From an uncultured Elusimicrobiales bacterium (GTDB lineage Bacteria; Elusimicrobiota; Elusimicrobia; Elusimicrobiales; Elusimicrobiaceae): a stretch of DNA of 64,000 bases. The notes below the pieces were generated by a model. The model was not told the origin of the DNA and ran no database searches. It was given only the letters and a program-made list of their open reading frames with translations. The stretch lies in the NCBI GenBank assembly GCA_944324115.1, contig CALUVB010000003.1, positions 1 through 64,000 of the forward strand. The letters run 5' to 3'. How positions within the stretch are numbered: the first letter of the stretch is position 1; each line of letters begins with the position of its first letter. The position numbers and the translations under genes are program-made. Positions 14,202 through 17,059 of this stretch are shown here, in pieces.

Positions 14202-14214
14202 TATAATACCCTTA
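14202..14214 (+). promoter_or_regulatory. Consensus -10 giving a leaderless def mRNA
   Basis: TATAAT (14202-14207) is followed by exactly 6 nt and the ATG of def. A weak -35 (TTGGGG, 14180-14185) lies 16 nt upstream. There is no ribosome site between the -10 and the start codon, so transcription most likely begins at the ATG. Confidence 0.6.
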
Positions 14215-14738
14215 TGGCTATACATAAAATCGTAAAATATGGCGATCCAATTCTGCGCCAAAAACTAAAACCTACAGATTTTGAAAAACTGCGCCCGGTG
14301 TTGCCGCAGTTGCTGCAAGATATGGAAGAAACTTGTCTTTCCGTACGGGGGGTGGGGTTATCCGCCAACCAAATTGGTTTAGACTATCGTCTGGCGGTGA
14401 TTCTTATTCCGGAATCTGAAAAGAAGAACGCGCCGCTGAAACGAATTGTAATTATTAATCCGGAAATCTTGGAAACGCATGGGGAAGTGGTGGAAGAAGA
14501 AGGCTGTCTTTCCCTGCCAGGTTTGTGGGTGGAAATCCCGCGTGCGGCCGATGTAACCGTGCGCTTTTTAGATGAAAATGGGGAAGCGAAAAAGGTCCGC
14601 GCGCGCGGGCTTTTGGCTAAAGCTTTCCAGCACGAGATAGATCATTTAGACGGCAAATTATTTATTGACTATGCAGAGCCGGCTTTAAAGCCTGCCATTA
14701 AAAAAGAAATTAAAAAATTGCGTTCTAAATGGGATTAA
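14214..14738 (+). CDS. def: Peptide deformylase
   Basis: A 174-residue metalloenzyme that removes the formyl group from nascent proteins. All three family motifs are present: motif 1 G-V-G-L-S-A-N-Q-I-G (Ser in place of the usual Ala), motif 2 E-E-G-C-L-S-L-P-G with the metal-binding Cys, and motif 3 Q-H-E-I-D-H-L-D-G with the two metal-binding His and the catalytic Glu. Length is normal. The usual neighbour fmt is absent. The gene is monocistronic, apparently leaderless, and closed by a terminator at 14755-14783. Confidence 0.95.
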   Translation: MAIHKIVKYGDPILRQKLKPTDFEKLRPVLPQLLQDMEETCLSVRGVGLSANQIGLDYRLAVILIPESEKKNAPLKRIVIINPEILETHGEVVEEEGCLSLPGLWVEIPRAADVTVRFLDENGEAKKVRARGLLAKAFQHEIDHLDGKLFIDYAEPALKPAIKKEIKKLRSKWD

Positions 14739-14754: not shown

Positions 14755-14783
14755 AAAGCCCGCTTGCCAAAGCGGGTTTTTTA
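14755..14783 (+). terminator. Intrinsic terminator after def
   Basis: The stem CCCGCTT/AAGCGGG with a GCCA loop is followed by six T residues. Confidence 0.85.
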
Positions 14784-14862: not shown

Positions 14863-14897
14863 TTGCGCAGCTGCCGGATTTTTATTATACTAACTTC
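14863..14897 (+). promoter_or_regulatory. Promoter of the lysA-aspartokinase leader
   Basis: TTGCGC (14863-14868), a 17-nt spacer and TATACT (14886-14891) lie exactly 6 nt before an ATG at 14898. This is the only good promoter between the def terminator and lysA. As with clc, def and the M50 gene, the spacing implies that the RNA starts at the ATG. Confidence 0.6.
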
Positions 14898-14993
14898 ATG
14901 GCACTGATTTTTTCCGTCAAACGTGTAAGCAAACAAAACAAGAGCAAGAAATGCCCTTGTGTTTTTGCTTGCAATTTGGCGGAAACGGATTAG
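14898..14993 (+). CDS. Lysine-rich leader peptide of the lysA operon
   Basis: A 31-codon ORF that appears leaderless. Five of eleven consecutive codons (8 to 18) are Lys: K8, K12, K15, K17, K18. After the Lys cluster come three Cys codons (19, 21, 25). The peptide has no other recognisable feature. The Lys codons form the left arm of a long hairpin (14911-14985), and the stop codon lies 16 nt past a segment able to block the downstream terminator. Position, codon content and RNA layout match amino-acid attenuation leader peptides such as those of trp, his and thr operons. That the peptide is translated, and that Lys-tRNA is the signal, is inference; the Cys codons are an alternative. Confidence 0.65.
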   Translation: MALIFSVKRVSKQNKSKKCPCVFACNLAETD

Positions 14994-15052
14994 CCGTATT
15001 TTAATTGAGAGAACCGATTTGACCCCCGCTTTATTGCAAGCGGGGGTTTTTT
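14911..15052 (+). promoter_or_regulatory. Attenuator (hairpin, antiterminator match, terminator) before lysA
   Basis: Hairpin 1:2 pairs 14911-14921 with 14975-14985 (11 bp, one G-T), 14927-14933 with 14964-14970 (7 bp), 14938-14942 with 14956-14960 and 14944-14946 with 14952-14954. Segment 2, GCTTGCAAT (14967-14975), is a perfect 9-nt complement of ATTGCAAGC (15033-15041), which spans the loop and first four bases of the right arm of the terminator. The terminator is CCCCCGCTT (15023-15031)/AAGCGGGGG (15038-15046) plus six T. Only 16 nt separate it from the lysA ATG, mostly ribosome site, so lysA must be expressed by read-through from upstream. Confidence 0.65.
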
Positions 15053-15068
15053 ATCGGGAGGAGCGTAT

Positions 15069-16325
15069 ATGTGTTTCCATTATGAAAACGGAGAAATGTA
15101 TGCGGAGGGCGTGGCGTTGGAAAAAATAGCGCAGGAAGTGGGCACTCCTTTTTATTGCTATTCTTATGGCAAATTGGCTGCCAATATAGCAGGATACCGC
15201 CGTGCGCTGGAGCCATTCCACAGCACAGTATGTTATTCTGTCAAAGCTAATGCCAATTTGGCGGTGGTGTCTGCCGTGGCGGCTTTGGGCGGCGGGGCAG
15301 ATGTGGTGTCTGGAGGAGAGTTGTTCTTGGCGCTTAAAGCCGGCATAACACCCGACAAAATCGTATTTTCCGGTGTAGGCAAAACCGAAGAGGAACTGGA
15401 ACAAGCACTCCGGCACGGCATACGGCAGATTAATGTGGAATCGGCCGAAGAATTGCAGCTATTGGCGCGTGTGGCGCAGCGCATAGGGGCGCGCGCCAAT
15501 GTGGCGCTGCGCGTAAATCCAGACGTTGATGCGTTAACCCATGTTAAAATTACAACGGGGAAAAAAGAAAATAAATTCGGTGTGCCTTGGCCGGAAGCAC
15601 ATGAACTATACCACGCGGCAGCCCAGATGCCGTCGCTGCGGGTGTGTGGGATAGCCGTGCATATTGGGTCGCAACTGTTAGATTTGGAGCCGTTTCGTTT
15701 GGCATTTACGCGCATAGCGGCTATGGTACAGGCATTGGAAGCTGACGGAATTACTATTGAAAATATAGATTTGGGCGGCGGTTTGGGGATAAATTATAAT
15801 GTGGAACTTCCACCTACCTGTGAGGCGTATGCCCAGGTAGTGCGTGAAACGTTGGGAGGATTGGATAAACATATTATTGTGGAGCCGGGCCGTTCGGTAA
15901 TAGGCAATGCCGGTGTTTTGGTGACTCAAGTGCTCTATACAAAACAAACAGACCAGAAACGCTTTATTATTGTTGATGCGGGCATGAATGATTTAATACG
16001 TCCGGCTATGTATGATGCTTGGCACAGCATATTGCCGGTGCACCGCGCGGGTACGGCTCCGATTGTGGCTGATATTGTGGGGCCTATCTGTGAGTCGGGA
16101 GATGTGTTTGCCAAAGAGCGTATTATTGAGCCTGTGCAACCGGGCCGCCTATTAGCTATAATGTGTGCTGGAGCATATGGCGCGGCGATGGCTTCTCAAT
16201 ATAATTTCCGTCCGCTTCCGGCGGAAGTAATGGTGCGCGGAAATGAGTATGCCGTCGTGCGCCGTCGCAGCAGTTATGAAGAAATGCTGGAAGGCCAACA
16301 AGTGCCCTCCTGGATTGGAAAATGA
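15069..16325 (+). CDS. lysA: Diaminopimelate decarboxylase
   Basis: A 418-residue fold-III PLP enzyme that converts meso-diaminopimelate to lysine. Seen are the PLP lysine (K59 in Y-S-V-K-A-N), the phosphate-binding glycine loop (L-G-G-G-L-G), E-P-G-R-S, and the active-site segment I-C-E-S-G-D contributed across the dimer. Length is typical. A strong GGGAGGAG ribosome site 5 nt upstream fixes the ATG. It is the first structural gene after the attenuator and overlaps the aspartokinase start by 4 nt, so the first and last steps of lysine synthesis are translated together. Confidence 0.95.
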   Translation: MCFHYENGEMYAEGVALEKIAQEVGTPFYCYSYGKLAANIAGYRRALEPFHSTVCYSVKANANLAVVSAVAALGGGADVVSGGELFLALKAGITPDKIVFSGVGKTEEELEQALRHGIRQINVESAEELQLLARVAQRIGARANVALRVNPDVDALTHVKITTGKKENKFGVPWPEAHELYHAAAQMPSLRVCGIAVHIGSQLLDLEPFRLAFTRIAAMVQALEADGITIENIDLGGGLGINYNVELPPTCEAYAQVVRETLGGLDKHIIVEPGRSVIGNAGVLVTQVLYTKQTDQKRFIIVDAGMNDLIRPAMYDAWHSILPVHRAGTAPIVADIVGPICESGDVFAKERIIEPVQPGRLLAIMCAGAYGAAMASQYNFRPLPAEVMVRGNEYAVVRRRSSYEEMLEGQQVPSWIGK

Positions 16326-17059
16326 ATATGAGCAAACAGATTTGTATTATGAAATTTGGCGGCAATACGCTGGCTAATAAGCAGAAACTTTTGATGGCTG
16401 CCCAATTGATTAAAGCCCGTTATGATAAAGGGTTCTTGCCGGTGATTGTAGCTTCTGCCAACGGCAATTTGACCGACGTATTGTTGGACCATGCCTACAG
16501 CATTAGCCGCAACCCTGATAAGCGGGAGCTGGATATGCTTATCACGACTGGGGAACGGGTTAGCGTGGCGCTTTTGTCTATTGCTCTGCGTGATATTGGC
16601 GTACCATCGGTTTCCTTGACGGGAAGCCAAATCGGTCTTATTACCACGTGTGCGCATACCGGGGCGGATATTTTGACGCTCAAAGGAGACCGCTTGGTGC
16701 GTGAGCTGGAAGCGGGCCATGTGCCTGTGGTGGCTGGGTTCCAGGGAATAGGCGAGAATAAAGAAATTACGACGCTTAAACGCGGCGGATCTGATGTCTC
16801 TGCGGTATTTTTAGCCAGCCAGTTGGGAGCCACTCATGTGGAAATGATTAAAGATGTCGACGGTGTTTATAGCGCAGACCCCAACAAGGACCTGCAAGCG
16901 CAAAAGTATGAGGTGCTGGATTTTGATGAAATGTATAAGCTGGCTCTGAACGGGGCCAATGTGCTGCACCCCGATGCGGTGCGGCTGGCAAAAGAAAAAG
17001 GAATAGAAATACGCATTGTTCACTATCAGACTGGTCAGACCGGTACGGTTATTAAATAA
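16322..17059 (+). CDS. lysC: Aspartate kinase, catalytic domain only
   Basis: A 245-residue amino-acid kinase. Markers: K-F-G-G-N-T-L at the N-terminus, T-T-G-E-R-V-S, K-R-G-G-S-D-V-S-A-V near residue 155, D-V-D-G-V-Y-S-A-D-P, and the aspartokinase-type E-M-Y-K-L-A-L-N-G-A-N-V-L-H-P-D-A-V. It stops where usual aspartokinases (about 400-460 residues) continue into two ACT domains that bind lysine or threonine. A terminator follows, so this is not a split gene. Without ACT domains the enzyme should be insensitive to lysine feedback, which fits an operon regulated at transcription. Another amino-acid kinase function cannot be fully excluded, but fusion to lysA by overlap supports the call. Confidence 0.8.
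   Translation: MNMSKQICIMKFGGNTLANKQKLLMAAQLIKARYDKGFLPVIVASANGNLTDVLLDHAYSISRNPDKRELDMLITTGERVSVALLSIALRDIGVPSVSLTGSQIGLITTCAHTGADILTLKGDRLVRELEAGHVPVVAGFQGIGENKEITTLKRGGSDVSAVFLASQLGATHVEMIKDVDGVYSADPNKDLQAQKYEVLDFDEMYKLALNGANVLHPDAVRLAKEKGIEIRIVHYQTGQTGTVIK

What the first reader, a model, noticed from the sequence alone, without database searches (positions are those of the whole stretch)
14863..15071. Lysine-codon leader peptide and attenuator upstream of lysA-aspartokinase
Seen directly: a 31-codon ORF (14898-14993) with Lys at codons 8, 12, 15, 17 and 18; these codons form the left arm of a hairpin (14911-14985). A right-arm segment (14967-14975) is a perfect 9-nt complement to 15033-15041 in the terminator loop and arm. 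A strong terminator ends 16 nt before the lysA ATG, leaving no room for another promoter. The geometry works for classical attenuation: a ribosome stalled on the Lys codons leaves 14967-14975 free to form the antiterminator, while one at the stop codon (14991-14993) covers it, so the terminator forms. Lysine genes are usually known to be controlled by the L-box riboswitch or by LysR-type regulators, so a leader-peptide attenuator would be unusual. Three Cys codons after the Lys cluster make a cysteine signal an alternative.
Basis: partly seen in the sequence, partly recalled or inferred. Interest (0 to 1): 0.88.

Follow-up and report, generated by a model that had tools for sequence, protein, structure and literature searches.

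The report
Lysine-sensing leader-peptide switch before lysA
In a genus of gut bacteria, the gene for the last step of lysine synthesis sits behind a tiny lysine-rich peptide gene whose translation appears to decide whether the gene is transcribed; the mechanism is a textbook one for other amino acids, but I found no report of it for a lysine operon.

Summary
Upstream of lysA (diaminopimelate decarboxylase) in this Elusimicrobiota genome (Candidatus Avelusimicrobium group) lies a promoter, a 31-codon ORF with five Lys codons, a 1:2 hairpin, an antiterminator segment and a terminator. Comparative tests I ran strongly support ribosome-mediated (leader-peptide) transcription attenuation. All 34 genus genomes with lysA carry the leader; none of the 32 without lysA do. 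All five Lys codons are invariant in 29 aligned leaders, with 13 silent AAA/AAG changes and no replacement. The 9-bp antiterminator is paired in 99% of cells through compensatory changes (slid controls 35-40%). A sister genus and an Elusimicrobium minutum-like genome have different peptides (5-7 Lys, one without any Cys) but the same switch. That argues for lysine and against cysteine. Two additions: the ORF's ATG lies 6 nt after the -10 box in all 29, so the leader mRNA is probably leaderless; and the lysine riboswitch (L-box) reaches its cut-off in 0 of 336 genomes of the phylum. The only aspartokinase lacks ACT domains. The lysine response itself is untested. New variant of a known kind.

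The parts
14863..14868 (+). -35 element TTGCGC of the leader promoter (17-nt spacer)
   Evidence: Sequence; TTGC at 17 or 18 nt from the -10 in all 29 aligned leaders
14886..14891 (+). -10 element TATACT, exactly 6 nt before the leader ATG
   Evidence: the 6-nt distance is fixed in 29 of 29 genus leaders
14898..14993 (+). leader peptide ORF, 31 codons, Lys codons 8, 12, 15, 17, 18; probably leaderless
14919..14951 (+). Lys codon cluster (segment 1, left arm; proposed lysine sensor)
   Evidence: Five Lys invariant in 29 of 29; 13 silent and 0 replacement changes
14898..14997 (+). 1:2 hairpin (segment 1 with segment 2)
   Evidence: MFE fold; 77% of cells paired against 37-49% slid
14967..14975 (+). 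antiterminator strand in segment 2 (GCTTGCAAT), pairs with 15033-15041
   Evidence: 99.2% of cells paired with compensatory changes
14979..14983 (+). second antiterminator strand (GCGGA), pairs with 15025-15029
   Evidence: 84.4% of cells paired; fold
15021..15052 (+). intrinsic terminator (segments 3 and 4, loop, T-run)
15033..15041 (+). loop and right-arm stretch of the terminator that is captured by the antiterminator
15069..16325 (+). lysA, diaminopimelate decarboxylase (regulated gene)
   Evidence: TIGR01048, 496.5 bits
16322..17059 (+). aspartokinase catalytic domain only (245 aa, no ACT), overlaps the lysA stop
   Evidence: PF00696 only; only aspartokinase found in the genome

Best explanation
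A lysine-responsive, ribosome-mediated transcription attenuator in the leader of lysA(-aspartokinase). Transcription starts at or next to the leader ATG, so ribosomes load on a leaderless mRNA end. If Lys-tRNA is scarce, the ribosome stalls on the Lys cluster (14919-14951) and holds segment 1. Segment 2 (14967-14983) is then free to pair with the terminator's left arm, loop and right arm (15025-15041), so RNA polymerase reads into lysA. If Lys-tRNA is plentiful, the ribosome runs to the stop codon, covers the 3' part of segment 2 and lets the inner hairpin re-form, so the terminator forms. Shown here: ORF, promoter spacing, alternative pairings, their covariation, Lys-codon conservation and co-occurrence with lysA. 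Inferred: translation, stalling, and lysine as the effector.
For: (1) Antiterminator covariation: the 9-bp helix is 99.2% paired, 5 of 14 antiterminator pairs have changes on both sides, 20 such cells (shuffled mean 5.4, 0 of 500 reach it), slid controls 35-40% paired. Examples: GCTTGCAA/TTGCAAGC, GCTTACAA/TTGTAAGC, GCTTGTGCT/AGTACAAGC. (2) Lys codons 8, 12, 15, 17, 18 invariant in 29 of 29 with 13 third-position changes and none at positions 1 or 2; other codons change at all positions; one-codon deletions keep frame. (3) Leader present in 34 of 34 lysA+ and 0 of 32 lysA- genus genomes; in four lysA- genomes def and aspartokinase are directly adjacent, so leader and lysA are present or absent as one unit. 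(4) Sister genus leaders MVNLISLKKAGIKIMGIKKSPYLSACDFVGK and MLTATVLKKAGKMTMGLKKAPYTFACDFADR, and E. minutum-like MLKNAKKTDSVKKGSKKTLGA, keep lysine and the antiterminator but not the peptide sequence. (5) The antiterminator duplex is predicted stronger than the terminator in all six leaders examined. (6) A frameshift in G023 and an early stop in L018 change the C-terminal peptide but keep the RNA arm. (7) No L-box over cut-off in 336 genomes of the phylum.
Against: No expression, ribosome-profiling or lysine-response data. K12, K15, Q13 and C21 lie in paired or nearby segments, so part of the conservation could be RNA-level. Segment 1:2 pairing covaries more weakly than the antiterminator. 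Leaderless initiation is inferred from spacing only. Five Lys in 31 codons is not an extreme run such as the seven His of hisL (own knowledge).
Confidence: 0.88

Rival explanations
1. Leader-peptide attenuation that senses cysteine (or a mix) instead of lysine, through Cys codons 19, 21 and 25.
For: Cys21 is invariant in 29 of 29 aligned genus leaders.
Against: The E. minutum-like leader has no Cys and seven Lys. Cys19 is R, S or H in 11 of 29 and Cys25 is Tyr in 12 of 28. The G023 frameshift moves the Cys codons. A ribosome stalled there would mask rather than free segment 2. The gene controlled is lysA.
Confidence: 0.03
2. The leader RNA is a metabolite- or protein-binding element (novel riboswitch-like RNA) and the ORF is incidental.
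For: Very stable 100-nt hairpin (z -7.25); nucleotide conservation of the Lys segment.
Against: No Rfam family at gathering score. Substitution pattern is codon-like: 13 silent and 0 replacement changes in Lys codons, in-frame deletions. No shared aptamer core: sister-genus and E. minutum-like leaders keep only Lys codons and antiterminator/terminator pairing.
Confidence: 0.05
3. The leader makes a functional small basic peptide or an arrest peptide; the terminator only tunes expression.
For: Q13 and C21 are also invariant in the genus alignment; leaderless leader peptides can act in trans (peTrpL of Sinorhizobium, PMC7298713, abstract).
Against: C-terminal third replaced by frameshift (G023) or truncation (L018) while the RNA arm stays. 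The peptide is unrecognisable in the sister genus and in the E. minutum-like genome apart from Lys. Precise antiterminator covariation would be unexplained.
Confidence: 0.03
4. Constitutive partial terminator separating a def-side transcript from lysA, with no regulation.
For: A terminator precedes many genes; def has its own terminator at about 14757-14780.
Against: The leader has its own promoter downstream of the def terminator. A simple terminator does not need a conserved, covarying antiterminator or conserved Lys codons.
Confidence: 0.01

Closest known systems
Classical amino-acid attenuators (thrL, hisL, trpL, ilv/leu leaders of Proteobacteria and Actinobacteria)
   Same: Short ORF rich in codons for the pathway's product, terminator before the first gene, mutually exclusive antiterminator, 1:2 hairpin
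   Different: Lysine specificity, phylum Elusimicrobiota, ORF start on the expected transcription start; strand 2 captures left arm, loop and right arm of the terminator together
rnTrpL/trpL of Sinorhizobium meliloti
   Same: Leader peptide read from a leaderless mRNA beginning with the AUG of trpL (PMC10117765)
   Different: Tryptophan, not lysine; different phylum; measured there, inferred here
SEP5 sORF of Sinorhizobium meliloti
   Same: Candidate leader peptide with Lys codons (three Lys, six Thr) upstream of an aspartate-pathway gene (PMC10117765)
   Different: Mixed Thr/Lys, before an aspartate dehydrogenase gene; in the text I read it is proposed from codon content and position, not from an antiterminator analysis
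Lysine riboswitch (L-box, RF00168)
   Same: Controls lysine genes in cis at RNA level in other bacteria
   Different: Binds lysine directly and needs no translation; absent from the window and not over its cut-off in 336 Elusimicrobiota genomes

Membership tests
Ribosome-mediated (leader-peptide) transcription attenuator | Short leader ORF with codons of the amino acid made by the operon | tested here: met
   Five Lys codons before lysA, invariant in 29 leaders; 5-7 Lys in divergent leaders
Ribosome-mediated (leader-peptide) transcription attenuator | Intrinsic terminator between the ORF and the first gene | tested here: met
   15021-15052; 90.9% of terminator cells paired
Ribosome-mediated (leader-peptide) transcription attenuator | Antiterminator that excludes the terminator | tested here: met
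   Covariation; duplex stronger than the terminator
Ribosome-mediated (leader-peptide) transcription attenuator | 1:2 hairpin overlapping the regulatory codons | tested here: met
   (weaker covariation than the antiterminator)
Ribosome-mediated (leader-peptide) transcription attenuator | Amino-acid-dependent read-through that requires leader translation | not testable with these tools
   Needs reporters or term-seq
Leaderless mRNA | Promoter placing the start on the AUG, no room for a Shine-Dalgarno | tested here: met
   -10 to ATG is 6 nt in 29 of 29; genome-wide TATAAT-ATG spacing peaks at 6-7
Leaderless mRNA | Mapped 5' end at the AUG | not testable with these tools
   No 5'-end data
Lysine riboswitch (L-box, RF00168) | Match to the covariance model | tested here: not met
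   No match in the window or leader; 0 of 336 phylum genomes over cut-off, controls positive
T-box | Match to the T-box covariance model | tested here: not met
   No T-box match even at E up to 5

The most novel reading that the evidence does not exclude
A lysine-specific leader-peptide attenuator on leaderless leader mRNAs is the lysine control of Elusimicrobiaceae. It does the job of the L-box, which was not found in this phylum, and of allosteric control of aspartokinase, whose only copy has lost its ACT domains.
Probability: 0.6. Interest if true: 0.75.

Novelty: new variant of a known kind. Interest (0 to 1): 0.7.

Why it matters
Lysine is usually described as controlled by the L-box riboswitch or by protein regulators (PMC1262725, PMC12925634), not by a leader peptide. 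A conserved Lys-codon attenuator adds lysine to the amino acids sensed by ribosome stalling, shows the mechanism in a poorly studied phylum, and offers a natural series of divergent leaders for asking how few and how spaced the regulatory codons may be. It can be tested in an E. coli reporter strain, and probably in a cultured gut bacterium.

Tried and rejected
Rfam at gathering and permissive thresholds: no family. Repeat-element origin: the leader occurs once in its genome (other matches are short, mostly terminator-like stretches). Origin with an alphaproteobacterial lysA: LysA is closer to alphaproteobacterial proteins, but model R1 found no leader in 20 such loci apart from one weak hit of 23 bits more than 2.5 kb downstream of the lysA match, on the opposite strand. 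Weak R1 hits (38 bits or less) in other genus genomes look like terminator-type noise and were not followed. The generic promoter scan found no promoter because TTGCGC misses its consensus. No second promoter + small ORF + terminator arrangement of this kind was found in the window. Literature: five searches for lysine leader-peptide attenuation found only SEP5; the library lacks most subscription papers, and the key 2003 lysine-regulation paper was not held.

Full report
What is there. Between def (14214-14738) and lysA (15069-16325; TIGR01048, 496.5 bits) lie the def terminator, a promoter TTGCGC-17-TATACT (14863-14891), a 31-codon ORF (14898-14993) and a strong terminator (15021-15052). The leader folds into one 100-nt hairpin plus the terminator, z = -7.25 against dinucleotide shuffles. 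The segment 14967-14975 complements 15033-15041 perfectly, and 14979-14983 complements 15025-15029. With the Lys segment removed and the T-tract not yet made, the predicted fold is the antiterminator.

Conservation. In same-genus genomes (named relatives are Candidatus Avelusimicrobium and uncultured Elusimicrobiales), 29 of the 30 lysA loci first fetched carry the same architecture; the thirtieth is a contig cut inside the leader. The five Lys residues are invariant. By parsimony on a LysA tree, Lys codons show 0, 0 and 13 changes at codon positions 1, 2 and 3, while the whole ORF shows 51, 69 and 101. This indicates selection for lysine, not only for RNA. Conversely, the C-terminal part is conserved as RNA: G023 has a frameshift after the Lys cluster and L018 an early stop, and both keep the right arm.

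Antiterminator. Counting pairs on the 27 distinct leaders, the 14-bp antiterminator has 93.9% standard pairs (9-bp helix 99.2%), five pairs with changes on both sides and 20 doubly changed cells (shuffled mean 5.4); slid versions give 35-40% pairing. The terminator is 90.9% paired. The 1:2 hairpin is 77.4% paired against 37-49% slid. Even leaders with a differently built terminator (L017-L019) largely keep the antiterminator.

Distribution. A covariance model found the leader at 74 bits or more in 34 of 66 genus genomes, exactly those with lysA (G102 and G104 checked). The other 32 have neither. In four lysA-less genomes def and aspartokinase are directly adjacent (G059, G055, G011, G030), so leader and lysA are present or absent as a unit. 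Across 341 phylum genomes the model finds it elsewhere only in two genomes of a sister genus, whose peptides differ but keep five Lys and the antiterminator. Reading upstream of other family lysA genes, an E. minutum-like genome (single contig of 1,643,562 bases; identification from its length is from my own knowledge) has MLKNAKKTDSVKKGSKKTLGA, seven Lys in 21 residues, -10-like TATTAT 6 nt before the ATG, and a 13-bp antiterminator. G129 has a possible further type. Several sister-genus genomes with a more distant lysA placed directly behind another gene have no leader.

Mechanism. The anatomy fits classical attenuation. Stalling on codons 8-18 occupies segment 1 and leaves segment 2 to capture the terminator. 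Completing translation masks the 3' part of segment 2 and lets the inner 1:2 hairpin re-form. Without translation the 1:2 hairpin forms and the terminator wins. In six leaders the antiterminator duplex is predicted more stable than the terminator (for example -27.5 against -16.7 kcal/mol; 0-1 of 500 shuffles as good). Translation, stalling and the lysine response are inferred.

Leaderless start. The -10 to ATG distance is 6 nt in 29 of 29 leaders, with TTGC 17-18 nt upstream of the -10. In the window's genome, TATAAT-to-ATG spacing peaks at 6 and 7 nt (27 and 22 of the 100 listed, against about 7 per other spacing), so leaderless mRNAs are probably common here. Leaderless leader peptides are known (trpL of S. 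meliloti, PMC10117765).

Context. The only aspartokinase found in the genome (245 aa) has just the catalytic domain; close relatives of it are in 64 of 66 genus genomes with similarly short frames, so ACT-based feedback is not expected. The L-box reaches its cut-off in 0 of 336 phylum genomes, with positive controls. Lysine genes are described as L-box- or ArgP-controlled elsewhere (PMC1262725; PMC12925634).

Cysteine alternative. Rejected: no Cys in the E. minutum-like leader, variable Cys19 and Cys25, and Cys21 explained by RNA pairing (columns 59-62).

Verdict. A real, conserved, very probably lysine-responsive leader-peptide attenuator: known mechanism, new amino-acid specificity as far as the held literature shows, and likely leaderless.

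Noticed in passing
window 16322-17059: Aspartokinase of 245 aa with only the AA_kinase domain, no ACT, and the only aspartokinase found in the genome; the short form is found in 64 of 66 genus genomes and an E. minutum-like genome has a 256-aa frame.
   Followed up: partly
window 15069-16325: LysA is more similar to alphaproteobacterial LysA (about 50-56%) than to LysA of another family of its own order (38-47%), which hints at horizontal transfer; no tree was made.
   Followed up: no
L175, L178, L179, L180: In lysA-less genomes of the genus def and the short aspartokinase are directly adjacent; the leader-lysA unit is missing cleanly.
   Followed up: yes
window 2684, 14214, 17149 and genome-wide: Several genes have TANNNT exactly 6 nt before ATG; genome-wide TATAAT-to-ATG spacing peaks at 6-7 nt, suggesting widespread leaderless mRNAs in this genus.
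   Followed up: partly
L149:1480-1616 (G038:C23:12279-12415): Orphan copy of the leader (MVSLFFVKRVSKQSKSKKRFCVPACGN) without lysA, facing a PHP-domain-like gene across an unrelated terminator; possibly a relic or a contaminant contig.
   Followed up: partly
L165 upstream of position 570 (G129:C109): Possible further lysine leader, MNTNIKPFAKQLKDKSSIKRLDFLRS, before a distant lysA, with antiterminator pairing but not leaderless.
   Followed up: partly
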